DNA of 64,000 nucleotides from Saccoglossus kowalevskii (lineage: Eukaryota; Hemichordata; Enteropneusta; Harrimaniidae). The position numbers were made by a program, and so were the translations under genes. Numbering within the stretch: the stretch's first letter is position 1; each line of letters starts with the position of its first letter. The stretch is taken from positions 272,198 to 336,197 of the forward strand of contig NW_003156243.1 of NCBI RefSeq assembly GCF_000003605.2, read 5' to 3'. The notes under the pieces were generated by a model, which had not been told where the DNA came from, did not search any database, and saw nothing but the letters and a program-made list of their open reading frames with translations. This document shows, piece after piece, positions 15,801 through 47,371 of the stretch.

Positions 15801-18800
15801 ATATAATGTGCTTAACATTGCCTTCTAAAATCCTCCATGGATATTAGAAATGAATAAGAAAAAGTGATGTCAGCAAGCAATTGCTCAAATACCAAATGTT
15901 TTTGTGTTGTATATAAACTGAATACAACACTTAGGATACAGCTATATACGGTAAACATATTGAAAACTGTAGAGTATCAATAATGTAACATTTGTGTGCT
16001 AAGACATTAAAGCTGTTTAACAATTGTTCTGTTTTCTCATAAGGATTTCTGGTAACAATCCCCGATCAACAGAGCGGGAAAGGCTATTACAAGAAGCATT
16101 GGATGTTAAGTGTTTGCAGGTAAATTAAATATTGAAAGAATTATCATCAAAAAGACACAGAATATTCCAAATAATTATGCACCTCACATTGTGTGCTTGT
16201 TCCATTATTGAACTCAGAAATATGTTATGTTGTTAACTCCTGGACAGAGAATTCTCATTGATATGTGATGTATTTTGCAGTTACTCAGAGCGTTAATTCA
16301 CAATGAAGAGCGTCAGTTACCAGAAGATTGGTTAAATGATCCTAAAAACAATGAAGAGTAAGTACTATTTTGCAGTGTGTCCTCTAACAGGACTGAATTT
16401 GTAGGAATCCTGAGTCAAAATTGTGTATCTTTTTACCATACACTCATATAAACTGTAGCCACTTGTATTTAAATTTGCCATTCATATATACATGTATAAT
16501 ATTTGCTCTATTAGCAGCACATTCACTCACATGAATTACTGAGATGTGTCTATATATAGTTGAGCATACAATAAATTTTGGTTTATTTGTCAATGAGTTC
16601 CATAGTTCCTAATATTGGCCACAAACTTAACCTGCTGGCTAAATAATTTGGTGTGTCTGCTGATAGTGACTTGAAAGTCAGAAAAACTACATTTGTATAA
16701 AATAGTAAATGCTGTGATTGATTGGCATATTTACAGAAGATAAAAATATCTCAAACATATCATATATTGCATATCCACTAATACAGCTGTGAAATATTTG
16801 CCATTTGTGACAACTGTATGATATTCTTTTTCTAATTTTATCAGTCAACTTGAAAAGATTGTGGCTGTACAAAAGGAATTGAATGAACATGGTGCCATGT
16901 TAAAAGTATTACCGTTATTGGCCAGGACAAGTGATAGTTTAGCAAGAGAAGTGTTAGCGTTTTTATCAGCTATGTTATTTGGTGGGAATGAAGACGTACA
17001 GGTAAGCATAACACTTCATATTCCATGCTAGGTTTTATATTGTGCAATCGTTTAATACTGTGATTATTCAGAATGTGGTAATTTTTAAGATTCATGTGAA
17101 CATCATAATGGCTTAATTCCTTTCTGCGCATTTGCTCTGATTTTTTTTACTTTCGCAAAAATGTTTTCACTTTCTGCCATCTCTAGAATGTCCCAGTGAG
17201 CAAACATCTGATATGAGTACATGATGAATTAGGCATAGCTGCCTTTAAGACAGAACTGGCTTTGCTGTTACCAAAATATGTATTCTATAAGGCTCTTAAA
17301 AAAGTAAATGAAGAAATAATTCATTGATCGGGCACCTGTTGAGTGTGTGGATTAAGATGTTGTGATTGTACATAATTCTTAACACAATAATCTATATTAC
17401 TTTTATCAGAAAAACTAAACTTGAATAATAACACTAAAAAAAAGTAATAATTGATGCTTTATTGTTTTATGGACATTTGTTTCATATTTACATACTGTTT
17501 ACTCTATCTTTGAGGGATTCTGTTGTGTACTATAGTTGAAATACTGTCTTGTGTGGCAGTTAAATTCTGTCATTGCATAGGACTATGCAAGGAGTAGCTC
17601 TTAATAAAAAAAAAGAATAACTTTAATCTACATACAGTGGGAAACTACTTTAATAAGTTGAAAACATCATAACTGAATAAATAGATTGGTTGAATTAAAA
17701 ATAAAAGTATACTAGTGTTTCCTACCATTGAAAGAGCCTGATGTTGTGGTACATTTCCTATGCCTGTGTAGTACAGCAAAGAGTTTTTACCCTGGAGCCA
17801 CTTTCTGGGTTCACTTGAAAGGCCGTACCCTCAGGAAACTATGAGGGCTATAGAAAGGGTTTATGAATGTGGCACAGATACATGTATGTATTCAATATCC
17901 TAAAAATAATGTTTTGTTTATTACAGTCAAGTCTAATTGATTATTTCTTAAGTACAAGAGAAGAACATTTCTTTATGGCGATTAAAAATCGTATGAATTT
18001 ATCTGCTGTGGCTACTAAAGAAAAGTAAGTTTTTATTTTGTGACTCAAGAACTGTTTGTGGCAGCCTTGTTATGCACAAGCAATTGGTGGTAAGCTATTC
18101 AATGGAAAAAAAACTAATTGTATTCTTGCATTTGCAATATGTATATACCGTAAACCATTTTAGTTTCCTGAGAAACAATGTTTTTCACTACCAGACTTTC
18201 TCACTCAAATTTGTCTGCACTTTTTACTTATATTATTTAATATTTCTGTTTTGGAGCCAACAGAGAAGATTTTAGTTTATTTTCAGTTTTTACTCAAAAA
18301 AATTGGCTATTTTCGTCACAACCTTCTGAAGGAAAGTGCAGACTATAAAATGGGACTATTTTGTGAATTTGTGATGAAAATAGAGAACTGGTGGTGAAAA
18401 GGTTAAAATTGATCATACATGAGGACTCCTGAACATCCACTTTGAAACCCACCCATGTTCATCCAACTGTATTGATCAATCTTCAAAATGTGAATATTAA
18501 TAGTAGTGATAATTTAATGCTTTACAGTTTTACTCAGTTTTATCATTTATCATTTATTTAATGTGATTACATTCAGGCGAGCACTTCAATCCCAACATCG
18601 AGCCAAAATTGATGAGGCATTGGAGCAACAGAAAAGTTTGAATAAAGCCTTGAGACATGGCAAGGTTATTGCTGAGGTAAGTAACAACAATTTGGAGTCT
18701 CAAGTAACTATATATAATAGTATAATAGTCACTGGTGCAATCTAATGGATTTACATCATCCGTTTGAAATAAACTGTAGCAAAGTAAGAAATAAAAAAAA

Positions 18801-21800
18801 AATCAGTTTAGTTAAGATATCAACTGAATACCAACATAATGATTATAATTTATAATTGCAGACCATCTTAGCTGGATCTATGATGATGAAAAGGAGTACT
18901 GCTGGCAGCAAAGGTAGACTTGGTAGTAGATTTGGTAGTAAGAGAGGTAAAGGAGGAATGGTTGGGGTAAGTTGCTTTGTCAGCTGTAATCACTACACTT
19001 CTATATTACCAAATGTTTTCATATACCTTGTTTGATACTAATCTTTATTTCTGTTATAAATGTATCTACCACAGAATTCTGGGATATATGATGATCCTTA
19101 TGTAGATTGCTTATTCCTCATCATTACTTTCTTTTATGGTGTGCCCTCTAAGCCGATATGATGAGCCATTGCCGCACAAAGATTTCGTTGTCTAGTTGTG
19201 ATAATTCACTTGATCGTCATTGACATAAATCATACATTGATCTAGTAATCTTTAACAACATATTACTCTAGGTAGGGAATTTGTAATTTGGTAAAATGAA
19301 ATTCACATTTTATAAACAAAATGAGTTCAAATACGAAGGAAATCAGCAGTCACAACATTTTTATTTGCGCCTCCACTCTCCGATACAATAACATACAAGT
19401 TTTTTCTTGACCTCAGCAGTCAACAAGCTGACTCAACTTGTTTTTTGGTGAATTTCATTTCACTTAGGATTTCTACAAAATCAGTCCTGTAAGAGGGAAC
19501 ACTGTTCTAATAGTTTCAGTACCTATAAAGCGTGGGGTTGTTAATAACATTTTTTTTCAGTTTATATTTTACTGGAATGAGAAGACAATAGGGAAACAAA
19601 AGCCAGATTAGTTGTTCTAACAACAACAACAACAACAACAAAAACAAAAATAATATCCCATGATTCCTAGGTGCAATCTTGTAGTAGATTGAGTAGGAAT
19701 GCTTAAAGCCAATTATAATGAATTGAGTAATCTTACTATCTTCTTTATTTTGTCACCACTGATTGTCTATGTGTTATATTCTATATATACCTTGTTTTCA
19801 CATTCTCTCTCTCTCTCTCTGACTTTCTAAATATGCACTCTCTACAGAGACACAGAAAACATAAGGTATACAATAACAGCCTTTCTTTACATAGTAATTA
19901 TCTTATTATCACAAATAATTAATTATTTTCAACTCTTACACTAGCCTGACAAGGTCGCGTGAGTTGCTCCCTCAACTGTGCTCCAAACCCAACACACGCC
20001 TGACAGAAAGATGTAGTTTTTCATTTCCCCAACGATTTTTTGTTGTTGGTACCAATCAAATTGAGGAACATCAGCATGTTTTTTAGCACAGTGACTCTTT
20101 CTCTGTCGTCCACATCTGTAAACACATTTTGTTTACTTCCGTTATCTAATCTGCTCTCAGGTTTAAACCTTGATTTTATAATTGACGGTGTTACCATGAC
20201 CACCAAAATGAATATTCATTGAAACTCATTGCAAGAAGGCGTGAACTTTTCGAATTTGCAGTATTGATCTTGCCGACAGGCATACACTATTCTCCGTTCG
20301 GCCGGTGAGGGCGCCACTCACACCTACATATCAGGCTACTCTTACACTTGATTTTTAAGTGAATAAGGCAAAAGACGAGTTTTGAGTTCTTGGGCATTTT
20401 CCATGGTTGCCACAAAAGAGGGGAGGGGGGGGGGCGATTTTACCACTGGTCACCCATTAAGTTAATGTTTGATGTATGTGCGATAAAAAACTGAAAACTG
20501 AAACTGGTATAATAAAATAATTTTTTGAAATGTGTATTTCTGCTGACCAGAAGTGAATCAATTTAATTTTCTATCACATGATGCACACAATACATTCATT
20601 TGATTGCTCAGTGCAGATGATTGAGAAATTATAAAAAAAGGTTTCACAGTTTATTTACAAGGCCTTTCAGGAAAGAATAGATAATTGATAGCTTTGAATT
20701 TTATTATTATTAGTCTTAGTTTTATTATTATTAAACTTATTAGTATTAGTAAAAAAATTTTAACACATTACATTTTACTTTTATACTTAACATTATAATA
20801 TTTTCTCTTTCTTTATTATTTCATTATTATTATTATACTTTGTTATACTTTTATTGCTACTGTACTGATAGAAATACTGTATTTCTAAAGATGCAATAAA
20901 TATTATTATTATTATTCACCCCCCCCCCCTTCGCACACATGGTAGCTTAGCAACCAGGGAACTTCAGGAACCTCAAACAGGTCTATTGCTTAATCGTATC
21001 GTTTATCGTACTGTATTCAATTTGCATGTGCACGTTTGAAAAATATTGGTGTCATTTTAACCCCTAGCTAATAGAAATGAGTAACCCTATCCATGTTATT
21101 ATATTTTTCAGCACACCAATAGTAAGATTAGGTTTTATAAATTTTCTCCTGTATCTTAAATTTTCAGAGTCAGAGATCAATGAATAGGCAAAAATTCTTA
21201 CAAGGAAGTCGACGAACATTGCGACCTCAAAACAAAGTGAATGATATTGATACTGCAATTTCAGCTGGTACAAGTGGTGCAGCGAATGGTTCAAAGAAAG
21301 CTTTGAATTCCAAAGAAAGTATTGAAATGGGTGGTATAAATAATGATAAAGTACCATTAATAAAAGTGGATAAACATGATAAAGGAGCTTCACTTAAAGA
21401 TTTGGGTGATATTGAATTTGAGGTAAACTTAAGTTCTTGTTTCTTTTAGTGGGATACTATCTAGACTCTATATTTGATGGCTTGGAAAGACACAAGGCAG
21501 TTTCAAATCATCTCAACATGTTACTGCAGATTTATCCAGTGCATCATGGGAGATAAGCTTCCATTGTATATAATGGAAAACTGTTATCACCCTGGAAACA
21601 CACTAAATTATATACAGATTTTTCATCCCATGTCACTGTAGAAACCAAAGTAAAAATTAAAATTTTTATAACTATTCAAGAAATTCAGACTCTTGTTTTT
21701 AAAAAAATTGTTCGATGACCCCACTATTTTTTGCTATTTTTAGTGTCCTGATGGATTGAATCAATAATAATGAAAGTATGACAAACGTGACATAATTTTC

Positions 21801-24800
21801 AGTTTGGCTCCAATTTTCTTAATTTACCAAAAACAAATCTGTAATAATTTGAGATTATCAGGCGTATTTGAGATAAGTATCACTGCTGGCAAATAATAAA
21901 GTTGATGGTCAATGTGTTTTCTCATCTATATAGGAACATCTTTTGTTATGTTTATTTTAATATTATTTTAATCTTATATGCTATTACACAAAAATATCAT
22001 GCTGCCACACACACATACAAACGAATCATGCAGTTAACAAGTCAACATCACTTGGATGGCTGGTTTCTAAAATTTATTGACAAATACAGTACATTTTATA
22101 AATTGTGAAATGCCTATGACTCTCCATATGCAGGATCTTCCACCAGAAGTTCAAAAATTAATAGAAGAAGCTGAAGCGGATGATTTGGAATTCAAAGATG
22201 ATGGATTCATTGAGTTAGTGTTAAGAATATTAGGACAGATGTGTGATGGACAACATTCATATTTACAGGTATTCTATCCATTTTTCATTTTTACTGGAAT
22301 TAATCTTTACTGACAAATTTTCTCATCATATACAACTTGTGTAAAAATCATTGTTTTCCTAAACTAAATCATGTGCTGCATGACTACTTTGGTGCTTCAA
22401 TTATGTATGCAATAAAGACAATCTTTATTTCTAGAGTGTAACATTACTTATAAAATCGTAGGCACGCAAAATGCAGAAGTTTTTCTTAAAATAATGAAGC
22501 ATGACTTTGTCCTCTACAAATTTTTGAAAAATACATTATTCAATGTAATTATATAAATAATCCATGAAAGGGTCAATGTCTTTTCTATGCAATGTCAGTT
22601 TTAGTATTTTATACTTTATTTTTTCTATTTTCTCCTCTTAATGTTTTACTTTTATTTAGTTAGTTTTATTATTTTAGTCTTTTGTTATTTTTACCATACT
22701 AAACCCCCTGATGGTTTTGGTTGTGTAATAAAGTTATTATTTAATTTTGGGCTAGTTGTTGAAACCCTCCTGAACAAGATTACACCTACATACCTGCAGA
22801 ATATATAAATTTGGTTATTCAGAATTGTTTTTCTTGATTTTAGCTGTTTTCACCGGCACTTTGACCAGTGTTCCACAGCAGCTTACATAGAGCAAATACA
22901 TCGTACCACAGTGCCCATCTTAGCATCATCAGTTCTGTGATGCAGCTATGCCCAGAGAATATGCTGAAATGTAATATTCCTTTCTTGATTTCAGAATTAC
23001 CTACGTGAACAACCTGATAACATCAAGAGCGTTAACCTAGTGGCAGAGACAGCTAGATTTCTTGATCTACTGTATTCTAATATTGACGATTCAAGTATTG
23101 CACTTGTTGAAGAACTCTTTACAACACTTAATGAATTTGCATCGGTGAGCCACACATCATAACTTGTTGTAATATTGTTACTGGCTGTTAAGCTTGTAGT
23201 CAGTTGAATTGTGATTATCAATAGCACTATGTCAGCAGTGGTTGTAAGTTTCTCAAAGCTTAAGATTGTATCAATCATACCAAAAAGGACAAATAATGTC
23301 TCGCGACTGGGATTCATTTTGTCGTATTTGGAGCCCCTGTGACAATGGAATATTTATAATAAAATAATTGGAAGTAACCTTTATTTTGTAGGGTAACCAT
23401 GCCAACGCAATGGTAATATTTGACAACAAGATAATAGAATATATTAATTATATTCTACGTGACACCAATATGGCTAGTAAGATAGTACTGGAGGACAACA
23501 AACAATTTGTAAGTATACAAATTTATTCATATTTTTCGTAACAGACCTTTCTCTACTAACTACCTAAAAAAGCAGAAAAGTTAAAAATTTTCCAGATTAT
23601 TGATGTTATGTGAATTTTGCTATCAGTTTACAGACAATGCAAAAAAAAGTTTGTGCGTTGGTGGTGTTTGATTATCTGATAATATTAAGCCCTTGTCTGG
23701 CAGCCATTTTAAAACAAAAAAAATTGTCAAAATGCATACAATTTAAATTCATAATTTAAAAACTATTTTGGGTACCTATTGATTCAGCAATTAATTATTA
23801 GAATTTAAGGAAATTCATGTTGAGAGATTGTGTTAGCTATGGCATCCACACCAGCAGATGCACTAGTAGAATTTTGTGCATAACACAAGCCATAATAAGC
23901 AATTGCTACTGTACGCTAGAACAATGGATAACTGAATCGCACACACACACAAATTGTTCGGCAGAAAGGAGGTACTTTAATACATCAGGGAACCAAAAAC
24001 TGAAGTGAACTGAGAATCTGCTGCCACTAGGTGGCGCTATACACAGAATCTAATAAACTAGCTACATGGTGATACAACACAGTATACTGAACAGGCAAGG
24101 CTAGACATGTGCAGCAATACAACAAATTTAACCTGATGCCACCATGAACCTAACACATGCTGATATCCTATTAAAATAATGAACTTCTTTCAGTGCCATT
24201 TTTGATTCTAATAATATATGCCACTGTGGGTCATTCATTATTTTAACTATATTTAAATAGTTGTTTATTGTATAATGATTACAGCTCTTTCTATTCTTTC
24301 CATAGCTTCACCAATTGAGGTTGTCTATTGCTAATCTAATTATGTCAATGATAGAAGAAAATAGTGCTGAAAGCACATTGTTGGCAGAAGAAGTCAAAGA
24401 AACCATAGATGAAGATGCAATACATGAAATAATGCTCGATTATTATAGAAAAGCAAAAGCGGTAAGAAACATTATCTTAGTATAAAAATAAAAACCTCAT
24501 CATTGTATTGAGGTTTAATATTGTAATTTTGACATCAAGATCACAGAAATTGACCATCGATATTAGTCTTCATTATTATTGACTTTATTGATGCACCGGT
24601 ATATAAATGTAATGCCATAAATCCTATCATAGAAGTGTCGCTGGTAGCGTAGTGGTAGGATTGAACAGCAAAAAACAACAATCAATTCTGCCCTGGGTGA
24701 GTGTGACGTACACACACTCAAGACTAAATCCACTGACAAAGATTCATTAACAAAATAATGCAACTTAGGGGGAAAAATCATGGGAGCTGCGTATTGGTTA

Positions 24801-27800
24801 CTGGTTTAAATTAGTCCCAGATATGCCCCAGATATTATATTTGTGTTTAAAGTTACATTTGGTTATATAATATTATTATTAAGAATCTTTTTAGTATTTT
24901 TAAAACATTTTACATTTGGTGAGTTTCCAGTGTTATAATAGTTATTCATTATATAGTAAGTTCTCTCTTATACGGAATTAGTTACAATGTAATACATAAT
25001 GGAAGCCATCTTGGACTTCTAAGGTTATGTTTGATTATCCTTGAGTTCACTGTATTCAGAGAATCTATTTTATCTTTTATTCTAAACCAACAGGCTTCAG
25101 ATAAGAGCACCAGAGAAGATTACACAGTAACTGGGTTTGCATATTATCATATTTTAATGAGATTACAGGATATAGATCCACAAATCAATAAAGAAAGTAA
25201 GAATTAATATCAACTTGAATCATGTATTTTGATTTATTATTTATTATGGGAAGGGGGAGCAGTGTCTTCTTGTCTCCTCTAGTATGAGTATGTCAATAAA
25301 CACATTGTTGTTAAACCTAAACACACATACATAAACCGTATATAAAATTTTATTGACATTGAAAACTGTCATATATCTTGTTTATGGTGGAAATAAAGCA
25401 TATTCTATTCTATTCTATTCTATATATCCTGGTTAAATCCTAATTTTGTTTTCTGGTTAGATTTGGTGAAAGTTAAAGACGATGATCCAAGTTATTCTAT
25501 AGAATGTGATAAAGGATGGGAATTCTATGCAGCTAACTCAATGTCAGTTGAACTACTTAAAGATGGAGAAGTTCAGAAAGTACACTTCAGAGTTAATGAT
25601 ACTGTAAGTTTTGTTACTATTTGTTCTAAGTGAAAAAATGGCTTGTTGTTGATGTGAATTTCTTCAGACATACACTCAAGAGTATGCATGTTATCTGAAT
25701 GCTTAATGTCATCACGCTTCTTATCGCTCTACCAATAACTATTCATGTAGTTGCAGTTCTCATTGCTTCTACCCTTAATCACCTCTGGTAGGTTCAGTTC
25801 CCACTGTTCTACTACCACCTCATCTACTAACCACTAACCACTAACAGTTCTCACTGCAGTAACCTTTGCAATATTTTGTAACTGTGTTTTGGGACTTGTA
25901 GTTTTTAATCTTGTTATTTGCTGTAAGTTTTCTACTTCTGCTTAGGGGGTTCACTGTGGTGCTTTCCATGTATACCGGTTTGCTTGCTACTGTTTTCTGG
26001 CTTGTATCCCAAAGTTGCTAACAGTGACCCCTCCGATTTGCCAAAAATAAATTTGTTTCTATTTTACTGTACAACTTCAAGTGTTGTGTCATAAATACTC
26101 AACAAGTATTTTACATGTATGTGAGGGTGCATCTTGATTGTACTTTATATAGTTTTGCTAAATGTTTATTTGTATCATGATGGATACTGTCAGATATCAA
26201 GGTTTCAATTAACATTAGGAATTTACAATTTGATTTGACTACAACAAATTACATCAATGATCTATGTGATTGTTTTTGAATGAAAACATACAAAAATGCG
26301 TATTTTGATTAGTAATCTTTTATTTTGTAGACTGTATTAAGAGAAGAAGTAAAAGAGAAAGTGAAGTGGAACATCAACAGAGAGTCACAGAGTGATAAGA
26401 TTGTGGATTTTGTTGATTGGTCAAAAGATATCATGAGTGACATCAAGTACCAGACCAAAGTTTTATCGTACAAACCAGCCAAATTTTTTATCACCTTAAC
26501 GTAAGTAGACATAACGTTCAAAATCTATTAGATTATAGATTTATTTATTCATCACCTATTATTAACTGATACAGAAATATTTTCTTAGATAGATTGATTT
26601 TGCTGACTTATGAAAGAAAATAGTCCCAAAATATTCAAATTTAATTTATTTTCATCATATATTGAAGTTAGTAAGATTGCATGTATGATATGTATTCAAA
26701 TCTTCTTGAGTTGTTAAATAGTGTGATTACAAAAAAATTTGAAAAGAATGTAAGTTGTTTGGGTGTCTTTATTCAATAATTTTGTGTAGATCTTATGTAA
26801 ATTATACATTTAATAAAAGTGCTGTTTTTTCATTGCAAACTGTACTTTATGTATTTTTTACAGGCCTTTGTGGAATTGGTCATTGTTACTATTGTCATTT
26901 GCAATCAATATTATCATAGTGGCAACATGGATTGCTCCAGCTGATACAAAAACGTAAGTTAAAAATAAATAAATTTACAATATTGTGAAAATCATGTTTG
27001 TTTGTGATTGTGGATGTACTAATTGTAATAATTTGTTTTCATTTATTTTTGCTTGGTAGAGTGAAACCTGACTTGCCTGCAACATACTGGGAAATAGTCC
27101 ACTATGCATTAGGAGGATTACACAATTTACTATCTCTTTGTCTACTTTTAAGTTTCTTTCTTTCAAATCATCCAAGATTTCCAACTGGAAATGAAATTAA
27201 AAACTTTTTCAGGTTTGTATAATTTTATCATGATACATAATTTTGTTGTTACTGTATGTATATTATAATTGTCCAAGTGAGCAAGTTTGGCAGCTTATGG
27301 AAAGTAGAATATTATAAGATATCAATACCAACATAGGTTTTAGGAAAAAGTTTATTTTAGATGAAAGTTTATTCATGACATAGCTTAATACAGGGCTCAA
27401 AACTAACAGCAGCCCAAGCCACACAGACTACCAATTCCTTCAAAATTAATAACTAATTTGTCTCTAAATTATGGGTGTCCAGCAAAAATTGGTCAAAATG
27501 TATTTAATATTTATTTTTATTGATACTTTTCTGCATGGCTGTTAGTACCTAATAAACCTGATAGACTACCCAATAATATCATAATAATACCATGGGAGTA
27601 CTAGCTGTACTTTTAAATAGAGTAACAAATTAAAGTTTTTGCCTTTTACTAATACATGGCAATATATGACCTCATTTAAGATCACCCTTGTGTCCACTCA
27701 AAATGAAGTCGAATATTTGATTTTTACAAAAGACATTTGTGAAAATTAAATATCATAATTCCAATTTTATACTATAAAATTTAGTATAGATAGCTGATTC

Positions 27801-30800
27801 ATTTCCAGAATTGGTCTTTGCTACATGCTAAATTGTTACTCTTGTCATTTTCCTTTAGACATCTGTTTGGTAAAGAAGTCCATGAAGAGAGACAGTCTAA
27901 CTTGGAGACAAAGTTCTTCAGTTTTACCACCTTTTACTACATTGTAAGTACATGGAACAGATCTTCTCTCCTTTGAAGCATCCCTTATGCTTTTGTAGTA
28001 ATTCAGATGGTATAATAATGTATATTTTTATTTTTTAGGTGTTTTTCGGATTCTCCATTGCTGGTACATTTCTCTATGGATACTTTTTTTGTTTCCATTT
28101 ACTTCACATTGTGATTATGAATCAGCTTTTGAACAGAGTGTTATTGGCTGTCACACTCAACGGTAAATATCATGTAGCTTTTCTATATTGTTTATATCTT
28201 ATTCTATAATGTTGGAGCATAACATTTCATTTGCGAAAACCAAGATTTGGAGTAGAGTACATTATGTTTTTTGTTTGTATTCATTATGTGAAAATAAATA
28301 AAAAAATTGGAGCATGACTTATTCGATGATTTTGGCATGTAACAATTCATTAGTAAAAACCAGGTTTTGGAGTAGGACTGTGTCAATTCTATAATATTTT
28401 AAACTACCAGAGTTATAACTTGATATATACTGTAACATGCTTTGATTGTTACCTAACTAGTCAGTAAAAGTAGTGAAATACTGTCAATACTGTTAAAGCA
28501 GCAGACTGTCACGCCATATATGATTCAATCATTTGTATTTTAACTTTACAGGCAAATCACTACTCTGGGTTTTCCTGTTGGGTTTCATCATCATTTACAT
28601 CTATGCAATTGTTGGATTTGCAGTTCTACGTAGTCATTTTGATACTGACTCGGGTCTCTACTGTGAAACCATGTTTCAATGTTTAGTGACATCTGTCAGG
28701 TTTGGACTTATTGATGGTCTGCAAGAGGTAAGAAGTTTTACTCTTACTCTGTCTTTGTTGTGTGTTTTCAAAAAAACATTTCTCATTATTTTATAAATTA
28801 TTTATATAATGTATGAAAAACATGCTATGCCTGAGAATATAAATAATAAGAGCAGAAAATATTAATAACTTGGTATTGTTATTAGCATGGTACAAAATGT
28901 TATAAATTTACATTTAATTATAATTTACGTTCCCTGTTATTTTTATAATGTGCCATTCCTGGCTTTAAATTTTAAATAGGTAAACAATTTTGTTAGCAAT
29001 GGAATTCAGATAAAAGTGCATGCCTTTGGACTTTATAAAAGATTATAAAATCTAGTTTGCATACCCCACTTTCAGTTGTACATTCTGTATGTTATTTTCC
29101 TATCTTTTTACAGTACTTGGCAATACCGGACACTGAAAACACTTTTCTGGCGTATGCATTACGTGCAATTTATGATATTACATTCTACATCCTGATCATT
29201 ACCATTGGATTGAACATCATCTTTGGTATCATTGTTGATACATTCTCAGAACTCAGAGATGCTAAGGTAAGAATGATTCAACTCTCAACTTATTATCGTA
29301 TAGTTTATGACGTCACAAGCCATTAGTTTGATAATTGGTATTTTACTACCTTAATTATAAAGTATATCAAAGCAGAGGGAAGTATATGAGTAGAACCTTA
29401 GGTAAAAGAATTTGCATCTTTTCTCTGCACTGACCAACCTTGTCTTGAGATTATGAATTGTGCCTGGGGAGGTGTGACAGGTAGTGTGAGTAATCGGCAT
29501 TAACTAATAAACAATGGATGAGATGACAGCTGCTGGGCATTGGATTCAAACTGTATTGAAAGGCATCATAAAAACCACATTTCAAACTTGGCACTATAAC
29601 AATCATACTATGGATTTGTACAATACAAGCACCTTTATAGAAACTTAAACCAAAAATCTTGACATTCAGTTGTAAATATATCTCAGGCAGTGAGTGGGTT
29701 TGAGTCTGCATTCCATTTACAATGACTTGTTTGTTTTTCCATTTCAGTGGAGGACAGATGAAGACATGAGAACATTGTGCTTCATTTGTGGGCGTGGCAG
29801 CTATGATTTTGAACACCATGGGAAAGGCTTTCGACATCATGTAAAATTTGAGCACAATATGTGGTCTTATCTCTTCTTCTTCATTCATTTGGATGATACC
29901 AGGTCAAATGACTACACAGCAATTGAACTCTATGTGTCAAATATGGTAAGGTTACCTATTCATTCAATTTTCACTTCATATATCATGGGCATATTTTCTC
30001 AAATTTATTTTCTTAATTTTATTTTCCTATTTTCTGACTGCTAACACCCAAACATCTGTGCAACCTCCATAGAAGATTTCATTAGTCAGATCTCAAAAAA
30101 AAATTCAATCTGGTTTTAATCAGATTGGTGTTTGTCTGTTGCATATTTTTGATTTCATTTATTGTCATCTTACAATTTATAACAACTTTAATGTATATGT
30201 TGATTGAATACTGCTTGTTGACAGATGTAATCAATGGATAATGATTTATTACAAACTAAAACATTGTGTTAATAATGCAACGAATAGAATTCATTTGTTA
30301 CCAGTACCTTCATATAAATTATTCAATTTTTAACCACATAGAGTTTTTCTAACATGCTTTACTCTAGTGTGTGCATATCAACCTGCAATAATTTAAGATT
30401 ATATTATAAAAATAATCATTGTTACTTTTATAGTTAAAAGAAGAAAATCATGAATTCTTCCCAGTGAATCGTGCATTGTGCCTTAGTAATGATGATGAAG
30501 ATTATGATACTAAAATAGATATGTTGATGGCAAGAGTAGATCAGATGATCAGGAGAAACAGAGAAGAGGTTGGTTTATGTAATTCCATTCTTAAACTGTA
30601 TTTTATTGTTAATAATAACTTTGTGTGATTGTGTTTTGTCAAATTCTGCTTATTGCTTATCAGGGAATAGTTGGTAAAAGCTTACCTAGAAATAGTTGGT
30701 GGCTACTTACCAGGGAATAGTTACCGATAATAGCTGCTTACCAAGGAATAGTTAGTAGCTACTTAACTTACCAGGAAATAGTTACCGGTAGTAGCTGCTT

Positions 30801-33409
30801 ACCAAGGAATAGTTAGTAGCTACTTAACTTACCAGGGAATAGTTGGTTGCTACTTACCAAAGAATAGTTGTTAGCTGCTTACCAAAGAATACATGTAGTT
30901 GTTGGCTACTTACCAGGGAATAGTTGGTTGCTACTTACCAGAGAATAGTTGTTAGCTGCTTACCAAAGAATACATGTAGTTGTTGGCTGCTTACCAGGGA
31001 ATAGTTGGTTGCTACTTACCAGAGAATAGTTGTTAGCTGCTTACCAAAGAATAGTTGTTAGCTGCTTACCAGAGAATAGTTGTTGGCTACTTACCAGAGA
31101 ATAGTTGGTAGCTGGTTATCTTCTACAGAAACATGTAGTAAGCACGTCTTTGCAACCTGTTTCACTTTACTTTGCAATATATCCTTAACAATGCTGAGGT
31201 TCAAATATAATAATTTACTTATTAAAACAAAATAAAAACAAGGTAGATATGTCTATAAATATCTATGATTTTTGCATATTGTAATTGGATTTGTTGTGCA
31301 ACTCTTCATGACCATGAAGTTTCGTACAGCAGAAAACAAATATGATTCCATGAAAACTTGAAATATCTCCTCAAATGCCTAGTCAAAATAAGTTATGGGT
31401 ATATAGCACATTGCTAATCACTTTACAATCAATTATTGCTGTTCTCTTACATCTCTGTAACAACTCTCATAGTCTTATTCTCTTAGACCTATCCCTGCAC
31501 TTATTGAGGCCTGTTTTACTCACATCACCATTTATGTTGACAGGACGCTAATCGTCGTCGTGATGAACTAAGACAGAAACAGATACAATGGGAGAAAGAA
31601 CACCGTGGATAATTGGAACTGCCAACATCTATTCCTCTGTATTGTTTACAGGTACACTTCTCTTCCATTCAACAGCTGTGGCAGATGGTTATTTACCCAT
31701 GTTAACCCATGTGATAACAGTGCTATATTCTTACCTGCATGTCTTCCTGAAAACTAACAAATATCTTGTAACTGTCACAGTCTTCTTTGCACAATTCACA
31801 GTATTATCTTGTTTAATTAACACTAAAAAATTATGTCATCTGTAGCTCTAACAATATTGCTACATCATGAGTGCTATGTGTACTTAAAATGATTACTTTA
31901 TGTGTGTACCGGGTAATAGGTGTGTCCATAGATTTTAGGATGTGGTTGTATTACCTTGTCTGTATCATCATGGAAAATGTCTGTCCTTGTTTTTGTTGGT
32001 GACTCCATACTAAAACCATTTTAGTTTCTGTTTGGACAAAGTCACAAAATGGGAACTTGGATTAACGTTCATCGGTATCCATGCAACCAAAAATTTGCTG
32101 AAATAAAACATTACTTTAGACATAGAAATAAGTGGACGGATTGAAGATATTCAACTGCTGATGATGTGAACCAGATGCTAGTAATTATTTCCAAGATTTG
32201 TCAATTAGTTAAGTTCAGTAAACAACTGTCCAGTTCAAGATACTCATAAAAGATATGGATGATCCATTTAATTCCTTCTAAATTTAAATACAATCAGGTG
32301 TGAATCGTTGTAGAAGTCTTAGACTAATTTTTTTGAGAAATGATGTAAATTATTACTTTATACATCTGCCACCAGAATGCCATTTGCGATATTACACTGA
32401 GTATTTGCATCCTACCATATTAGGAAATGCAAATTCCAAATATGGAACAATTATGCGCATAAGCGTCATCTAATACTAAAAACACAACATGGCAGCCCCA
32501 GAAAACTTTATTTGTAAATTTCACGAAAAAGCATGGAAACTTTTTGGATTTTTCAGCTTTAAGACTTTGTATTCACTGTGTTTGCAAATATGTGTTCTAC
32601 CCTTAGTCATCTTTGTCAGCATATTCACTCACATTACAGCTGTCATACAAGAACATTATAGAACAGTTACGGAAGGAGTAACTAAAAGAATTACCTGAGA
32701 TGTGTAAATTATATCCTTAGATCTTTTGCCAGCGTGTTAACAGAGTATATAAATTGTATTTTTTGTGGATCCAATACTCGACTCATTTACAGTGTGTATA
32801 ATGATTGTCAAGTGTGATCTCCCCCCTGACTTTCAGTTAGATTTGTGTTGCTGCAGCCAGGAGTTAATACTAAAGACAACTGCTTTTAAAACAAATGTAC
32901 TCAGTTCACTACTCAATTTAGAACTATACTAGTTATAGATGTATTGTCAAAAATAAAAAATATGGTTACATTTTTTTTATCTGTATATCATACAAAAAAA
33001 CAATTATTATTGCCTCAGATGGTTGTGTTATTGCACAAAAACAAATACGTGTAAATTTGATTTCTCAACTCTAGGGGCACTTTAAAATGTCGTGATTACA
33101 GAATAGGACAAATATTTTGTTAATAGTTTGTATAAATATAATGCCTGAGATTATTTCTGCACAAAAATTAATGCATGTTAAACTTAGCTTGTCACATCAA
33201 TCAAAGTAGTACTGTAAGCATTTTACAAATAGAGGCATTGTGTCAACAGTGGTTCTGTTAGTCACTTCTATTTATACTTATTTTTGCAGGATAAAATGAA
33301 AAAGAAACAGGAGCTGGCACAGAAAGATAAACAGAAACAACAACAGTGGGCTCAAATGATGCAACGAGCTACAACTGCGAAAGGAAGAAGTAGAGTACCT
33401 CAAGACTGA
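35..33409 (+). CDS. Gene A: IP3 receptor (ITPR)-like Ca2+ channel, C-terminal ~1,530 codons, 36+ exons (5' part outside window)
   Basis: Predicted endoplasmic-reticulum Ca2+-release channel of the IP3R/RyR superfamily, closest in layout to IP3R. Hand-spliced exons: 35-158, 5310-5374, 6062-6158, 6687-6815, 8165-8274, 8391-8475, 8627-8814, 9730-9916, 10152-10238, 10875-10979, 13755-13826, 13996-14131, 14817-14997, 16044-16119, 16281-16357, 16845-17001, 17927-18024, 18577-18676, 18862-18966, (19848-19865), 21168-21422, 22134-22268, 22995-23144, 23392-23508, 24306-24461, 25094-25196, 25461-25603, 26331-26500, 26864-26953, 27060-27212, 27859-27943, 28039-28162, 28552-28727, 29114-29266, 29748-29945, 30434-30568, then 31544-31612 or 33290-33409. 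All junctions keep frame and use GT-AG. The translated order matches IP3R1 from roughly residue 1400 to the end: RIH region, RIH-associated domain, third helical block, six membrane helices, CFIC zinc linker, coiled coil. The N-terminal IP3-binding core is not in the window, so IP3 sensitivity cannot be judged. A paralogue (gene B) lies downstream in opposite orientation. Confidence 0.93.
261..501. mobile_element. MITE-like foldback element in gene A intron 1
   Basis: Inverted ends: CATTCATGTTACAGATCT on the left and, read on the other strand, CATTCATGTAACGGGATCTC on the right, enclosing about 200 bases. No clear target duplication. The interior has no support as a gene. Confidence 0.55.
696..872. 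repeat. Imperfect foldback
   Basis: Left arm GAGAGCCACAAGACTTG and right arm whose complement reads GAGAGCAACAAGACTT, about 175 bases overall. Probably a small non-autonomous DNA element. Confidence 0.4.
1424..1462 (+). CDS. Gene A candidate 13-codon microexon in intron 1
   Basis: A 39-nt open segment encoding QQLKGTNKLKHVQ is bounded by a pyrimidine-containing acceptor (tttcaataaacag) and a donor (gtacga). Its length is a multiple of three and its phase (0) fits both flanking exons, so including it would keep the frame. Gene B shows no counterpart. It may be a cassette exon or a chance match. Confidence 0.35.
2300..2580. mobile_element. GC-rich repeat-like segment after a poly(G) run
   Basis: A run of 13 G at about 2306-2318 is followed by about 250 bases clearly richer in GC than the intron around it (ggcgccctc, caaaggcgacc, gccgcttgcatgccgagg). 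It looks like a piece of an inserted element, but I cannot assign a family. Confidence 0.3.
3113..3915. repeat. Tandem duplication of a ~400-bp intronic segment
   Basis: Copy 1 (about 3113-3528) and copy 2 (about 3529-3915) share long near-identical stretches, for example tgtgactttctattgg, cttctaatagcagctaat, aaattgaagtacttctactt and gtgctagtggtctatggtgc. Copy 1 carries an extra (GAATA)n microsatellite at about 3342-3372. Confidence 0.85.
5511..5831 (+). mobile_element. Foldback MITE, copy 1
   Basis: About 320 bases: a unique part beginning ATTAGGAAACACAAATTCCA with CATAAGCGTCCTCTAATA, ending in a hairpin whose arms read AGGTTATTATTAGGATACTGG and, complemented, GAGGTTATTACGATACTGGA. A second full copy lies inverted at 14411-14735. 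Confidence 0.75.
5840..5925 (+). repeat. Dispersed repeat fragment (shared with ~19283-19370)
   Basis: ATATGGTAAAATGAATTCAC and GAAATCAGATGCCACA resemble TTTGGTAAAATGAAATTCAC and GAAATCAGCAGTCACA near 19285. Similar spacing suggests a common repeat. Confidence 0.4.
7343..7481. mobile_element. Foldback MITE, copy 2 (hairpin part)
   Basis: Arms: TAAGCTCATCACAAGTATACCGC on the left and, complemented, GAGGTTATCAAAAAAATACCGC on the right, with tgtgtcaatcaa in the loop, as in copies at 5702, 13565 and 14411. Preceded by a shared lead-in (acaagcaggaaaaa) also seen before copy 3. Confidence 0.6.
8165..9916 (+). CDS. Gene A exons 5-8: RIH region (VEELNLP...CAEGENRF block)
   Basis: Exon 5 (8165-8274) encodes VEELNLPIKRNQ and FFMQYRPEVAYII; exon 6 (8391-8475) ends in SALVDVLATCAE; exon 7 (8627-8814) begins GENRFIESICQTIFSLDELL; exon 8 (9730-9916) begins RFWGIMENMTKEFE and ends FDGMLPMIQ. 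This matches the IP3R stretch with HLVELLAVCTEGKN, LPLDDIV and WKLFENF, a diagnostic landmark of the IP3R central solenoid. Exon 7 carries 95 bases identical to gene B. Exon 8 is 24 nt longer than its gene B partner; the extra codons lie in a charged loop (DPTEDGKNH). Confidence 0.93.
9071..9184. repeat. Foldback of ~114 bp
   Basis: TGGTCTGGATACGGCTTTTG pairs with the complement TGGACTGGATACAGCTTTTG of the right end. CCCTCG words in the loop recur in the region 8880-9140. Confidence 0.6.
9187..9582. mobile_element. MITE of ~396 bp with ~30-bp terminal inverted repeats
   Basis: Left end AGGCCAGACTTTTTTTATTC then CTTGTTTCTCGAG; right end complement AGGCCAGATTTTTATTATCC then CTTGTTTCGCGA. No coding capacity. 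It lies in the intron between gene A exons 7 and 8. Confidence 0.75.
10152..16357 (+). CDS. Gene A exons 9-15: central helical region up to the RIH-associated domain
   Basis: Exons 10152-10238, 10875-10979, 13755-13826, 13996-14131, 14817-14997, 16044-16119 and 16281-16357. They encode a mostly helical, charged stretch: VFFMQFYRIDKEQY, NFVKVAGELLSNMTHMKT, KYEDYYKAEEEVND, EYTEIGGDEELPLGEEFQ, and LLRALIHNEERQLPEDW. It corresponds to the IP3R segment ending KVLQTLREMM. Exon 13 holds a run of six lysines after NL, absent from gene B. The intron between exons 10 and 11 is about 2.8 kb and ends with a foldback element. All seven exons have in-phase partners in gene B. Confidence 0.9.
10980..13564 (+). 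other. Large gene A intron 10, nothing recognisable
   Basis: About 2.6 kb of AT-rich sequence between exon 10 and the foldback before exon 11. I see no exon, RNA gene or clear repeat. Confidence 0.5.
13565..13679. mobile_element. Foldback MITE, copy 3 (hairpin part)
   Basis: GAGGTTATCACCAGAATACCGCAAAGTAT pairs with the right arm, whose complement starts GAGGTTACCGCAAAGTATGC. Located 75 bases before gene A exon 11. Confidence 0.65.
14411..14735 (-). mobile_element. Foldback MITE, copy 4 (full length, inverted)
   Basis: Hairpin GAAGGTTATTACGAGAATACC ... TAATAACCTTATG followed by a tail that is the reverse complement of copy 1 (CATGGGAATGCCAAAATC, GAATCAGCGAACTTCTTTGTG, GACACGCTTATGTGCG, CATTTCCTAATATGG). 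It lies between gene A exons 12 and 13. Confidence 0.75.
15505..15563 (+). mobile_element. LINE-like 3' tail with (ATT)n
   Basis: CTGATAGAAACATTGTATTT, CTAAGGATGCAATAAAG and then ATT repeats. Nearly the same tail occurs at 20860-20918, indicating two retroposed copies of one family, 5' truncated. Confidence 0.5.
16845..18676 (+). CDS. Gene A exons 16-18: RIH-associated domain
   Basis: Exon 16 (16845-17001, 157 nt) encodes VQKELNEHGAMLKVLPLLAR and EVLAFLSAMLFGGNEDVQ; exon 17 (17927-18024) encodes SSLIDYFLSTREEHFFMAIK; exon 18 (18577-18676) encodes a charged helix KRALQSQHRAKIDEALEQQK. The pattern is that of IP3R/RyR RIH-associated domains (LNKxGAxxLVxDLI, ILLAIALLEGGN, then a segment with FFKVFYDRM). 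Phases 2/2/0 match gene B exactly. Confidence 0.93.
18862..21422 (+). CDS. Gene A exons 19-21: Gly/Arg/Lys-rich linker, mostly specific to gene A
   Basis: Exon 19 (18862-18966, 35 codons) encodes TILAGSMMMKRSTAGSKG followed by repeated RLGSRFGSKRGKGG-like blocks. Candidate exon 20 (19848-19865) is an 18-nt microexon RHRKHK with AG/GT borders and phase 0. Exon 21 (21168-21422, 85 codons) encodes SQRSMNRQKFLQGSRRTL and then a Lys/Asp-rich, low-complexity linker ending DLGDIEFE. In IP3Rs this position is a flexible linker between the RIH-associated domain and the next helical block, and is often spliced or phosphorylated. Gene B has only a 40-codon exon here (51309-51428), with no counterpart of exons 19-20. 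Role unknown; basic clusters suggest binding to an acidic partner or membrane, which is inference. Confidence 0.8.
19285..19470. repeat. Imperfect foldback
   Basis: GGTAAAATGAAATTCAC pairs with the complement of GTGAATTTCATTTCACTT about 150 bases on; related to the fragment at 5840-5925. Confidence 0.4.
19943..20337. mobile_element. MITE (395 bp) with perfect 11-bp target-site duplication
   Basis: The element begins AGCCTGA and ends TCAGGCT. It is flanked on both sides by ACTCTTACACT (19932-19942 and 20338-20348). It is richer in GC than the intron and has no coding capacity. An 11-bp duplication is within the range of Mutator-like elements (about 9-11 bp) rather than Tc1/mariner (TA) or hAT (8 bp). 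Confidence 0.85.
20860..20929 (+). mobile_element. LINE-like 3' tail with (ATT)n, second copy
   Basis: CTGATAGAAATACTGTATTT, CTAAAGATGCAATAAATATT and ATT repeats, followed by a C-run. Same family as 15505-15563. Confidence 0.5.
22134..26500 (+). CDS. Gene A exons 22-28: third helical block and junction to the channel
   Basis: Exons 22134-22268, 22995-23144, 23392-23508, 24306-24461, 25094-25196, 25461-25603 and 26331-26500. Landmarks: LRILGQMCDGQHSYLQ, NYLREQPDNIKSVNLVAETA, FLDLLYSN, GNHANAMVIFDNKIIEYIN, LIMSMIEENSAES, FAYYHILMRLQDID, WEFYAANSMSVELL, VHFRV and IVDFVDWSKDIMSD. They align in order with IP3R [27 protein letters not shown], the ANQ/ENQN segment, ALEFYAKHTAQIEIVRLD and the helix leading to S1. 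This block passes regulatory changes to the pore in the family. Exon lengths match gene B for most of the seven exons. Confidence 0.94.
22600..22745 (+). mobile_element. Retroposon 3' end fragment
   Basis: T-rich stretch ending CCCCTGATGGTTTTGGTTG and TAATAAAGTTATTATTTAA, typical of a 5'-truncated non-LTR element tail. Family not determined. Confidence 0.35.
24024..24037 (+). promoter_or_regulatory. CTCF-like core motif
   Basis: CCACTAGGTGGCGC fits the bilaterian CTCF core CCASYAGRKGGCRS at every position. It lies in the intron between gene A exons 24 and 25. A single match in 64 kb may be chance or part of a repeat. Confidence 0.4.
24637..24785 (+). mobile_element. tRNA-derived SINE-like element
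   Basis: GGTAGCGTAGTGGTAGG resembles a pol III box A, and CAATCAATTCTGCCC about 40 bases on resembles a decayed box B, followed by CTGGGTGAGTGTGACGTACA. Not a tRNA gene: no cloverleaf can be made. Confidence 0.45.
25300..25425 (+). mobile_element. Retroposon tail ending in (ATTCT)n
   Basis: TGGTGGAAATAAAGCATATT runs into four ATTCT units at about 25402-25422, as in 5'-truncated LINEs with simple-repeat tails. It ends 40 bases before gene A exon 27. Confidence 0.45.
26864..29266 (+). CDS. Gene A exons 29-34: six-helix channel domain with a non-canonical selectivity filter
   Basis: S1: PLWNWSLLLLSFAINIII (26864-26953). S2: HNLLSLCLLLSFFLSN (27060-27212). A cytosolic linker (27859-27943) follows. 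S3/S4: VFFGFSIAGTFLYGYFF and LLNRVLLAVTLN (28039-28162). S5: LLWVFLLGFIIIYIYAIVGF, luminal loop and pore helix CETMFQCLVTSV (28552-28727). S6: YDITFYILIITIGLNIIFG and GIIVDTFSELRDAK (29114-29266). The S6, NGKSLL and pore-helix CETM are plainly IP3R-like. The canonical filter GGGVGD/GGGIGD is absent: after TSVR comes FGLIDGLQE at the exon end, then YLAIPDTENT. I found no in-frame coding segment for a GGGVGD stretch in the 386-bp intron at this point. Confidence 0.93.
29748..30568 (+). CDS. Gene A exons 35-36: zinc-binding C-terminal linker and start of coiled coil
   Basis: Exon 35 (29748-29945, 66 codons) begins WRTDEDMRTLCFICGRGSYD and contains FRHHVKFEHNMWSYLFFFIH, the Cys-Cys-His-His linker motif shared by IP3Rs and RyRs, followed by TAIELYVSNM (compare TGPESYVAEM in IP3R). 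Exon 36 (30434-30568, 45 codons) encodes LKEENHEFFPVNRALCLS, like IP3R IKERNLDWFPRMRAMSL, and then an acidic, helical stretch ending MIRRNREE. The donor after exon 36 (gttggt) is weak. Reading on without splicing would add 19 codons (VGLCNSILKL...) and stop at 30628. Confidence 0.93.
30660..31117 (+). repeat. 25-bp minisatellite (ACTTACCAGGGAATAGTTGG family)
   Basis: About 17 diverged units of AGCTGCTTACCAAAGAATAG plus TTGTT, lying in the intron between gene A exon 36 and the first alternative last exon. Confidence 0.9.
31544..31612 (+). CDS. Gene A alternative last exon a (coiled-coil end ...EKEHRG)
   Basis: After acceptor tgttgacag the exon encodes DANRRRDELRQKQIQWEKEH, then RG and TAA (31610-31612). 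Its phase (0) fits the end of exon 36, so the charged coiled coil continues for 22 residues and ends. It has no usable in-frame donor before its stop. It competes with the exon at 33290. AATAAA hexamers at 32102 and 32952-32958 could serve this shorter transcript. Confidence 0.72.
   Translation, partial: DANRRRDELRQKQIQWEKEHRG
32413..32500 (+). mobile_element. Fragment of the foldback MITE family
   Basis: CATCCTACCATATTAGGAAA, GCGCATAAGCGTCATCTAAT and CATGGCAGCCCC match the unique part of copies at 5511 and 14411. The hairpin part is absent. Confidence 0.6.
33290..33409 (+). CDS. Gene A alternative last exon b (basic/Gln-rich tail ...RVPQD)
   Basis: After acceptor tatttttgcag the exon encodes DKMKKKQELAQKDKQKQQQW, then AQMMQRATTAKGRSRVPQD and TGA (33407-33409), 39 residues. 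Like exon a it begins in phase 0 with an Asp codon, so exon 36 can join either one, giving two different C-terminal tails. In IP3Rs the C-terminal coiled coil contacts the N-terminal domains of neighbouring subunits and carries binding sites for other proteins. The effect here is inference. Confidence 0.75.
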   Translation, partial: DKMKKKQELAQKDKQKQQQWAQMMQRATTAKGRSRVPQD

Positions 33410-41656: not shown

Positions 41657-43691
41657 TTAGTGTTGTAATGTTTCAATATTGTTTAGGCATAATGCACGGT
41701 TGACAGGGAAGAATCCATAATCAGGCACCTCCAACTGAAAATAAAAGTTGTACTAATTATTAATAATTCTAACAAGAGACAAAGTGACACTGATATTAAT
41801 GGTGGTGAAAGGGATGGAGATGTTGGGTTGACGCACATACCAATCATTCTAATCGACCTCACGATTTTGAATGAAGCAAACATCCGGGCTTTTATGTAAA
41901 TTTAGCTGTGGTCGATTTTTCAGATGTCTAACGTGTTTACGCTACCACATGTGTAACCATGGTGTTTGATAATTTGTTATATAACACGCAATGAGCATTT
42001 ACAAACCCGTGATGGGTTAGTTTCTACCCCTGTGTTTACGTATCAATATGCCCGCTACAGGATTATCCTCGCAATGTGAGGTATCAGCTGCCAATTATAG
42101 TATAGTATAGTGTAGTATATTTTATTTGACTCAAATTAATGAATTGGAAATACATTAACCATGGTCAATAATCATACACACAAAAAAACACAATAACAAG
42201 AAATACAGATATAAAAAATAAAATAAAATGTTAAAAACAGATAACACTAACAACTGTTAGGTATTACATTGTAAAATTATGTTAATATAAAATGTAGTTA
42301 GCTTATTAGGTTTAATTTTAGCAACGTGGCATTCATTTAATGCAAACACAATTGAGCTTAATTATGACGTGGGGGTTTATACCTACAAATCCCATGTTGC
42401 ACAACACAATTAGCGCAGTTGCTCGCACTGTAAAATGAATATTATATTTTGGTAAAATGCCAGAAAAAATAAAGAAAATACCACACCAATGAACAGCGAT
42501 GTATACATCCAACCATCATACCACATGCCTCAAACCCTAAAACGTCTGACAAAATGAAACAAAAGCAAATGACAATAAATATCACGACTAACTACCAATC
42601 ATTTTGTAACATAATTTTTGGACAATTTGAAAGTTACGCAGTGTTAATAAGTGGAGTCAATTCAGTGCGACCATTAATGTTTTGTCGATGGACAGTGTAA
42701 ATAGTAATGGTAACGAACAACAGAGCGGGATTACAGGACAGGTTGAGAGTGCCACACAATCTTTGCAGTGTGATCATGAACACGCAATATCATGTACCAA
42801 AACCTGGATCGACGACACACAGAAAACTACGAATTTGGACAGAAAGCAATATATTAGATGAGCACGAAACTTTTAGGCACCTGTGAAAGTGACCATGTGA
42901 TTATTGGAAACTACCGTAGTTAAGGTGGGTTACCTGAATCTAACATTAGTTCATAGGACAGAAGATGACCAACAAGAGACAGACATATCGTGCTCATGGT
43001 GCAAAAGAAATAACAGAAATAGAATAGAACATTAAAAAATTAAGACATCATGATATCGGACACCAGCCACCATGAAGTAAGGAGAAAACTGTCACAACTG
43101 TATCAACATACTTGCATCACAACAAGTAATTAAAAGCAATAGCACATCCTATGAAAAAGAAGACGGACCTCACAACGCTGTCATTTGTTTTCTAAAACAA
43201 CGTTGAGGACACTCGAAAATTATTAGCAGTTAGTTATTTATTTAATTAAATGCGTGAACGTTGACCAAACGAAGAAACATTTTTATGTACAAACATTGTG
43301 AGTGACCATCGTGGACGTGAAAAATATCTAATTACAGATTAAGGATATTGGATACAAGTTGTCTAGATTACAGTGAATCGTCGAGGTAATTGTCCGTTGC
43401 AGTTTCGAATTTCCATCTACATTACATTAATATAATAATCCAACTACTATCTAACTAATCTATCTACGTTTTAAAAAAATATAAAACGCTTACCATGTTC
43501 AAAACGTGGAGTTCCAATGCAGTTAGGTCGTTGGTGGCAGTTTCGTTCAGGTGAATGAAGAAGAAGAGATAAGACCAAACATTGTGTTCCAATTTTACAT
43601 GTTGTCGGAATCCGTTTCCGTGGTTTTCAAAATCATAACTTTTTCGACCACAAATAAAACACAGAGTCCGCATATCTTCATCTGTTCGCCA
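41657..43691 (-). CDS. Gene B exons 40-41: zinc linker and truncated C-terminus
   Basis: Exon 40 (43691-43494, 66 codons, same length as gene A exon 35) encodes WRTDEDMRTLCFICGRKSYD and FRQHVKLEHNVWSYLFFFIH, keeping the Cys-Cys-His-His set. Exon 41 (41734-41657) encodes LEVPDYGFFPVNRALCLNNI then ETLQH and TAA. It matches gene A exon 36 through NRALCL and then stops, so the coiled-coil tail is missing as modelled. No convincing donor lies before the stop. A further 3' exon reached by an unseen donor cannot be excluded. Confidence 0.85.

Positions 43692-47317: not shown

Positions 47318-47371
<54 letters not shown>

What the first reader, a model, noticed from the sequence alone, without database searches (positions are those of the whole stretch)
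28552..29266. IP3R-like channel without the GGG(V/I)GD selectivity filter (gene A)
Seen: the pore helix CETMFQCLVTSV and the S6 with GIIVDTFSELRD are IP3R-like, yet the loop between them reads RFGLIDGLQE|YLAIPDTEN. Known: IP3Rs and RyRs share GGGVGD or GGGIGD here, and this sets Ca2+ permeation. Inference: the channel has altered ion selectivity or conductance, possibly a third subfamily. The frame is intact over dozens of exons, so this is not decay of a dead gene.
Basis: partly seen in the sequence, partly recalled or inferred. Interest (0 to 1): 0.88.

Follow-up and report, generated by a model that had tools for sequence, protein, structure and literature searches.

The report
Animal IP3R-B channels missing GGGxGD filter
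An acorn-worm gene, its neighbour and related genes in many other invertebrates encode relatives of the IP3-receptor calcium channel in which the glycine-rich ion filter has been replaced while the gate is tightly conserved, so this known but little-studied channel family probably handles ions differently or not at all.

Summary
The window is Saccoglossus kowalevskii genome. Gene A (+, 5' half upstream of the window, stop at 31612) splices 28552-28727 to 29114-29266 in phase 0 and reads VRFGLIDGLQE|YLAIPDTEN where IP3Rs read GGG(V/I)GD. Its convergent paralogue gene B reads ARYGLLESFHE|SIGIPAS. Neither intron can code Gly-Gly in a forward frame, so a hidden microexon is excluded. It is no quirk: both fit the described IP3R-B subfamily (lost in vertebrates, absent in fly and nematode; reported not to bind IP3). 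In my tree all 63 bilaterian/placozoan representatives lack GGG; the 120 listed IP3R-A controls (mostly arthropod) all have GGG(I/V)GD; most choanoflagellate-type members and homoscleromorph sponges keep GGGLGE. The filter state changed at least 5 times, while the S6 gate is the most conserved of ten segments measured, the Ca2+-site acids mostly persist, and the IP3 beta-loop motif is gone. Best reading: a Ca2+-gated, IP3-independent channel with a remodelled permeation path. Main rival: a natural pore-dead scaffold. No electrophysiology exists here. The subfamily is known; my searches listed no report of its filter loss, but the key 2015 paper could not be read.

The parts
48..31612 (+). gene A (IP3R-B-type channel, Saccoglossus public model P0001): about the last 1,550 residues, 36 exons in my model; 5' half upstream (P0001 residues 458-563 map to L010 = C4564:252198-262197)
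28552..28727 (+). gene A exon: S5, pore helix CETMFQCLVTSVRFG and first part of replaced filter LIDGLQE
29114..29266 (+). gene A exon: YLAIPDTEN loop and S6 with gate NIIFGIIVDTFSELRD
28728..29113 (+). intron splitting the filter; no Gly-Gly in any forward frame, no cassette exon candidate
29748..29945 (+). gene A exon: zinc finger CFICG...HVKFEHN
22134..23144 (+). gene A exons of the RIH_assoc domain (22134-22268, 22995-23144) with the two Ca2+-site acids (MCDGQ, TLNEF)
26864..28162 (+). gene A transmembrane exons before the pore (26864-26953, 27060-27212, 27859-27943, 28039-28162)
31544..31612 (+). gene A last exon, C-terminal charged tail and stop
41660..63800 (-). gene B, convergent paralogue (public model P0005 residues 775-2473), 5' part beyond the window end (L011)
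44252..44433 (-). gene B exon: S5, pore helix, replaced filter YGLLESFHE
43911..44060 (-). gene B exon: SIGIPAS loop and S6 gate

Best explanation
Genes A and B encode IP3R-B-type members of the IP3R/RyR superfamily: proteins with Ins145, MIR, RIH, RIH_assoc and Ion_trans domains (domain content shown by sequence; tetramer and ER location inferred from the family). The ancestral IP3R-B filter, most likely GGGLG(E/D), was replaced in the animal lineage by a glycine-poor stretch two residues shorter (replacement shown; direction inferred from the tree). The cytoplasmic gate in S6, the Ca2+-site acids and the zinc finger are retained and constrained (shown), while the beta-loop motif that binds IP3 is gone (shown). 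I infer a channel opened by cytosolic Ca2+ or other inputs rather than by IP3, whose open pore conducts through a remodelled filter with different selectivity or conductance from IP3R-A and RyR.
For: Homology: human IP3R3 chain 6dqj at 8.9e-44; Pfam RIH_assoc, Ion_trans and RIH over cut-off for gene A, RIH_assoc and Ion_trans for gene B; P0001 carries PF08709, PF02815, PF01365, PF08454, PF00520. Fold: AF2 monomer of mollusc relative P0012 matches IP3R3 first, E 1.5e-24. Family-wide loss: 98 of 115 pore-covering proteins of the 120 listed lack GGG (5 do not cover); after dropping 6 incomplete rows and collapsing at 90% identity, 79 of 93 lack it, and all 63 rows of the bilaterian/placozoan clade are among them (one row, P0025, is unnamed). 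Control: 120 of 120 listed proteins of the IP3R-A search have GGGIGD or GGGVGD (best 120 of 2613 hits, mostly arthropod, many isoforms). Gate: over those 63 rows the S6 gate has mean rate 0.15 and the zinc finger 0.40, against 0.85 for all well-filled sites and 0.94 for the nine filter sites, the 71st percentile of 583 nine-site windows. IP3 site: 0 of 65 IP3R-B of 2440 or more residues match RTTxR (3 of them lack the stretch), 59 of 65 have K for R504, 57 of 65 have S for Y567. Ca2+ site: first acid D in 58, E in 6, N in 1 of 65; second E in 65 of 65. An acid stands at the canonical place or within three residues after it in 60 of 79 no-GGG representatives. So constrained a gate is hard to explain if nothing passes through it.
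Against: No recording exists. In mammals G2498S in the GGGXG motif of IP3R2 gives a dead pore (PMC7939385 passages) and D2550A in IP3R1 stops conduction (PMC10406432 passages), so replacing the whole motif may abolish flux. An acid at the canonical place is kept in only 30 of 79 no-GGG representatives, and 19 have none there or within three residues; filter sites evolve faster than most windows; both look like relaxed constraint. Capsaspora IP3R-B was reported to show no IP3-evoked Ca2+ release (recalled abstract). S6 could be conserved for assembly alone. IP3 alpha-site bases K508, R511, R568 and K569 are mostly kept, so loss of IP3 or other phosphate binding is not shown.
Confidence: 0.55

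Rival explanations
1. Natural pore-dead IP3R: the protein assembles in the ER but does not conduct; it serves as a scaffold or sensor, for instance at ER contact sites or for store-operated entry.
For: Pore-dead mammalian IP3R1 D2550A restores store-operated entry (PMC10406432 passages) and pore-dead IP3R1 and IP3R2 support ER-mitochondria contacts (PMC6700175 passages). Filter sites evolve faster than most nine-site windows and GGG changed state at least 5 times on the tree.
Against: The gate is the most conserved of ten segments measured, the Ca2+-site acids persist, and filter sequences are coherent within clades, e.g. GLIGD(M/L)F(E/D) and (S/T)PYTTFE in molluscs.
Confidence: 0.33
2. Modifier subunit: IP3R-B joins IP3R-A in mixed tetramers and lowers or alters their flux.
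For: Tetramers with two mutant-filter and two normal subunits keep part of their function (PMC7939385 passages). This genome also holds the N-terminal part of a canonical-looking IP3R at C300:93973-106775.
Against: Capsaspora IP3R-B was reported not to associate with mammalian IP3Rs (recalled abstract). Gene A's C-terminal region is only 25-26% identical to fish ITPR2.
Confidence: 0.09
3. Artefact: mis-splicing, an unseen microexon that restores GGGxGD, or a decaying gene.
For: No transcript of this locus was examined here; the public model P0001 itself skips one exon.
Against: No Gly-Gly in any forward frame of either intron; the same absence in gene B, in the 63 rows of the bilaterian/placozoan clade and on contigs barely longer than the coding sequence, which look like transcripts, e.g. 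P0059 (2605 aa on 8915 bases); 79% identity to Glandiceps over the C-terminal region.
Confidence: 0.02

Closest known systems
IP3R-B subfamily (Alzayady et al. 2015, Mol Biol Evol; leech IP3RB, PMC7992859)
   Same: Taxon range: leech, limpet and polychaete proteins fall in my clade and the leech paper names these and acorn worm in its tree legend; no vertebrate, fly or nematode name stands inside my clade. IP3-site residues changed; PMC9113742 (passage) cites Alzayady for IP3R-B not binding IP3, though it also says that RyR replaced it in Holozoa.
   Different: I found no mention of the filter loss: the leech paper has 0 occurrences of selectivity, pore or GGGVGD. The 2015 paper is not held, so it may say so.
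Canonical IP3R-A (ITPR1-3, insect IP3R)
   Same: Domain order, S6 gate, zinc finger, second Ca2+-site acid; alpha-domain basic residues K508, R511, R568, K569 mostly kept.
   Different: GGG(I/V)GD in 120 of 120 listed controls and absent here; RTTxR loop absent; R504 to K, Y567 to S; two residues fewer from pore helix to filter acid.
Ryanodine receptors
   Same: Pore region matches RyR structures at about 1e-33.
   Different: Metazoan RyRs have GGGIGD (PMC7399828 passage) and about 5000 residues; gene A's public model has 2536 and no RyR-specific or SPRY Pfam domain listed.
Paramecium and oomycete Ca2+-release channel homologues
   Same: Some Paramecium CRCs depart from the six-residue filter consensus (PMC3213138 passages); some oomycete ITPRs read GGGLG(G/S) (PMC7399828 passages, whose figure also shows the choanoflagellate Salpingoeca rosetta).
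   Different: Distant protists; in animals the loss covers a whole subfamily beside an IP3R-A that keeps the motif.

Membership tests
IP3R/RyR superfamily | RIH_assoc and Ion_trans C-terminus; Ins145 and MIR N-terminus | tested here: met
   window part; P0001 precomputed Pfam
IP3R/RyR superfamily | GGGxG selectivity filter | tested here: not met
   superfamily membership rests on homology and domains
IP3R-B | falls in a clade apart from IP3R-A, with leech, limpet, polychaete and Capsaspora members | tested here: met
   (Helobdella P0106, Lottia P0073, Capitella P0109, Capsaspora P0080), with fish and mite IP3R-A as root; no RyR in the tree, and no accession-level link to the 2015 sequences (P0080 is CAOG_04510, named only hypothetical protein)
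IP3R-B | does not bind IP3 | not testable with these tools
   sequence proxy only: 0 of 65 match RTTxR, 3 of them lacking the stretch
IP3R-A | GGG(V/I)GD filter and RTTxR / RxRQKxxR / YRKN IP3 contacts | tested here: not met
RyR | about 5000 residues with SPRY/RyR domains, GGGIGD filter | tested here: not met
   domain list and length
Functional cation channel | conducts ions | not testable with these tools
   gate conservation only

The most novel reading that the evidence does not exclude
A whole animal subfamily of intracellular release channels has given up the glycine filter shared by IP3Rs and RyRs, more than once, and conducts through new kinds of filter (in one modelled mollusc protein a short helical turn ending in an acid; in others Thr-rich or hydrophobic). 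It would be an IP3-independent, Ca2+-gated channel with its own ion preference, used in specialised cells such as leech touch neurons, which express ip3rb2.
Probability: 0.4. Interest if true: 0.85.

Novelty: new variant of a known kind. Interest (0 to 1): 0.6.

Why it matters
The GGGxG filter is treated as a fixed signature of IP3 and ryanodine receptors, and single changes in it stop conduction in mammals. A large animal subfamily lacks it yet keeps the gate under the strongest constraint of the segments measured, so either there is another way to build a permeation path on this fold, or animals have carried natural pore-dead IP3Rs for over half a billion years (age by general knowledge). 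Vertebrates, fly and nematode are reported to lack the subfamily, which is why it is little studied; in leech one member marks touch neurons. Recording from one expressed IP3R-B would decide.

Tried and rejected
Hidden microexon or cassette exon: none in either intron. Decay: rejected by intact frame and conservation. Conserved acid at the canonical place as a general rule: rejected, 30 of 79; a further 30 have one only at the next three places and 19 have none. Single change of the GGG state: rejected on the trees (0% of bootstrap trees); but gains and losses cannot be told apart by parsimony: one search's 3 changes could be one loss and two regains; one search's minimum is 5, and by my own reading 8 losses if GGG never returned. 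Long branches and unnamed rows (P0096, P0079, P0147) weaken the deep part. Rows were chosen: one search used 44 and one search used 59 of the 164 proteins.

Structure: two AF2 monomers only: in no-GGG P0012 the pore helix 691-704 is followed by a helical turn 707-710 (block pLDDT 81); in GGG control P0096 the helix 729-742 is followed by coil (block pLDDT 79). One model each, no tetramer, not of gene A itself; weak. Canonical IP3R-A pore of the same genome: the contig holds exons only to about residue 896 of 2676, and the search for the pore elsewhere did not complete, so the within-genome filter control is missing. RyR was not put in a tree. The exact beta-loop pattern RTTxR finds 93 of 120 IP3R-A controls (RxRQKxxR 111, YRKN 112), so it misses some true sites. 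brought nothing on IP3R-B; one search showed that weak hit L034 is unrelated.

Full report
WHAT IS THERE. The window is acorn-worm genome: gene A's best public match is P0001 from Saccoglossus kowalevskii, 93% over the searched region, and the window lies at G000:C4564:272198-336197. Two IP3R-like genes face each other tail to tail. A comparison of open frames on the two strands found matching exon pairs along most of the window; gene A is on +, gene B on -, and the drafts are 50% and 58% identical over the two main aligned stretches. A splice-aware model of gene A ends with a stop at 31612; the gene B draft matches P0005 at 96%. The IP3-binding region of gene A's public model (residues 458-563) lies on the same contig, in the second 10 kb stretch upstream of the window.

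THE PORE. Gene B has the same intron position and also no filter glycines (its acceptor scores lower, but P0005 uses it). Neither intron can code Gly-Gly in any forward frame.

FAMILY. Three homology searches gave 283 proteins; searches list only the best 120 of 160 and of 2613. Among the 120, 98 of 115 that cover the pore lack GGG, 17 have it, 5 do not cover it. An alignment-free count over the 164 proteins gives 108 without, 43 with, 13 not scorable; these include distant protists. In the IP3R-A control 119 of 120 read GGGIGD and 1 reads GGGVGD. The control is mostly arthropod and holds many isoforms of single species; 'IP3R-A' is my label from the names given.

TREE. With the filter columns left out, 93 representatives put all 63 bilaterian, acoel and placozoan rows in one clade, none with GGG. 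A careful tree of 59 chosen rows, rooted on fish and mite IP3R-A, has that group at 100/100 (23 rows), 14 of 15 rows of the clade that holds Salpingoeca rosetta with GGG, the homoscleromorph sponges Oscarella and Corticium with GGGLGE, and other sponges and Capsaspora without (one odd exception, P0147). Five changes of state are needed and forced by well-supported branches; gains and losses are not told apart. Most choanoflagellate-type rows are unnamed; only P0125 and P0127 are named Salpingoeca. The sponge label of P0076 and the source of P0138 are recalled from gene-name prefixes.

WHAT CHANGED AND WHAT DID NOT. From the conserved G after the pore helix to the filter acid there are 9 residues in GGG proteins; in the others the place is 7. 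An acid sits there in 13 of 14 GGG representatives (the odd one, P0115, is probably out of register) and in 30 of 79 no-GGG ones; another 30 have an acid only at the next three places, e.g. the mollusc PYTTFE type, and 19 have none. Site rates over 63 rows: S6 gate 0.15, zinc finger 0.40, S4-S5 0.41, upper S6 0.44, pore helix 0.61, filter 0.94, next loop 1.75. The first Ca2+-site acid (E in ITPR2) is D in 58, E in 6 and N in 1 of 65 IP3R-B rows, the second E is kept in 65 of 65 (in P0073 the first is misaligned; site identities recalled from IP3R and RyR structures). IP3 contacts: RTTxR in 0 of 65 IP3R-B rows of 2440 residues or more (3 lack the stretch), against 93 of 120 in IP3R-A by the same simple pattern; R504 is K in 59 of 65 and Y567 is S in 57 of 65; the 65 include GGG-bearing members. 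Contact numbering is recalled.

KNOWN OR NEW. The leech paper (PMC7992859; passages read) takes IP3RA, IP3RB and RyaR as the three bilaterian types, says IP3RB is lost in vertebrates and absent from fly and nematode, names Saccoglossus in its tree legend, and finds ip3rb2 in touch neurons of Hirudo (its Helobdella orthologue did not show that pattern in juveniles); it does not mention the pore. PMC9113742 (passage) cites Alzayady 2015 for IP3R-B not binding IP3. That paper is not held. The listings of my searches (several cut at 20 of up to 426 papers) showed no paper that reports the filter loss in this subfamily; this is not proof of novelty.

MECHANISM. Shown: homology, filter replacement, conserved gate, changed IP3 site, spread over phyla. 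Inferred: ER tetramer, Ca2+ gating, changed selectivity. Passages in PMC7939385, PMC10406432 and PMC6700175 show that filter mutants of mammalian IP3Rs are dead pores yet can still act as scaffolds, so the scaffold rival keeps about one third. I lean to a working channel because constraint peaks at the gate and most members keep an acid at or just after the filter's end.

Noticed in passing
27060-27212: A 51-residue exon with a transmembrane stretch is skipped in the public model P0001 but present in gene B/P0005 and largely in P0006; donor gtttgt is non-consensus in both genes and skipping keeps the frame, so it is an annotation error or alternative splicing.
   Followed up: partly
41660-41734: Gene B's last exon runs into a stop soon after FFPVNRALCLNN, so it seems to lack the C-terminal charged tail that gene A encodes at 30434-31612.
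   Followed up: partly
30656-31118: Minisatellite in a gene A intron (unit about 25-81 bases, CTTACCAGGGAATAGTTGG...).
   Followed up: no
38353-39220: Regular 34-base tandem array, 25.6 copies at 89% match, between the two convergent genes.
   Followed up: no
53085-54140: Long imperfect arrays of AGTAAAGTACGGTACATTA-like units in a gene B intron.
   Followed up: no
proteins P0006 and P0103: Saccoglossus has further IP3R-B models: P0006 with pore YGFLGILPEQL, also no GGG, and P0103 that does not cover the pore. No third pore locus showed up in this assembly (six matches).
   Followed up: partly
L028 (C300:106000-110883): The canonical-looking IP3R of this genome has exons on contig C300 only to about residue 896 of ITPR2, so its pore could not be checked.
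   Followed up: partly
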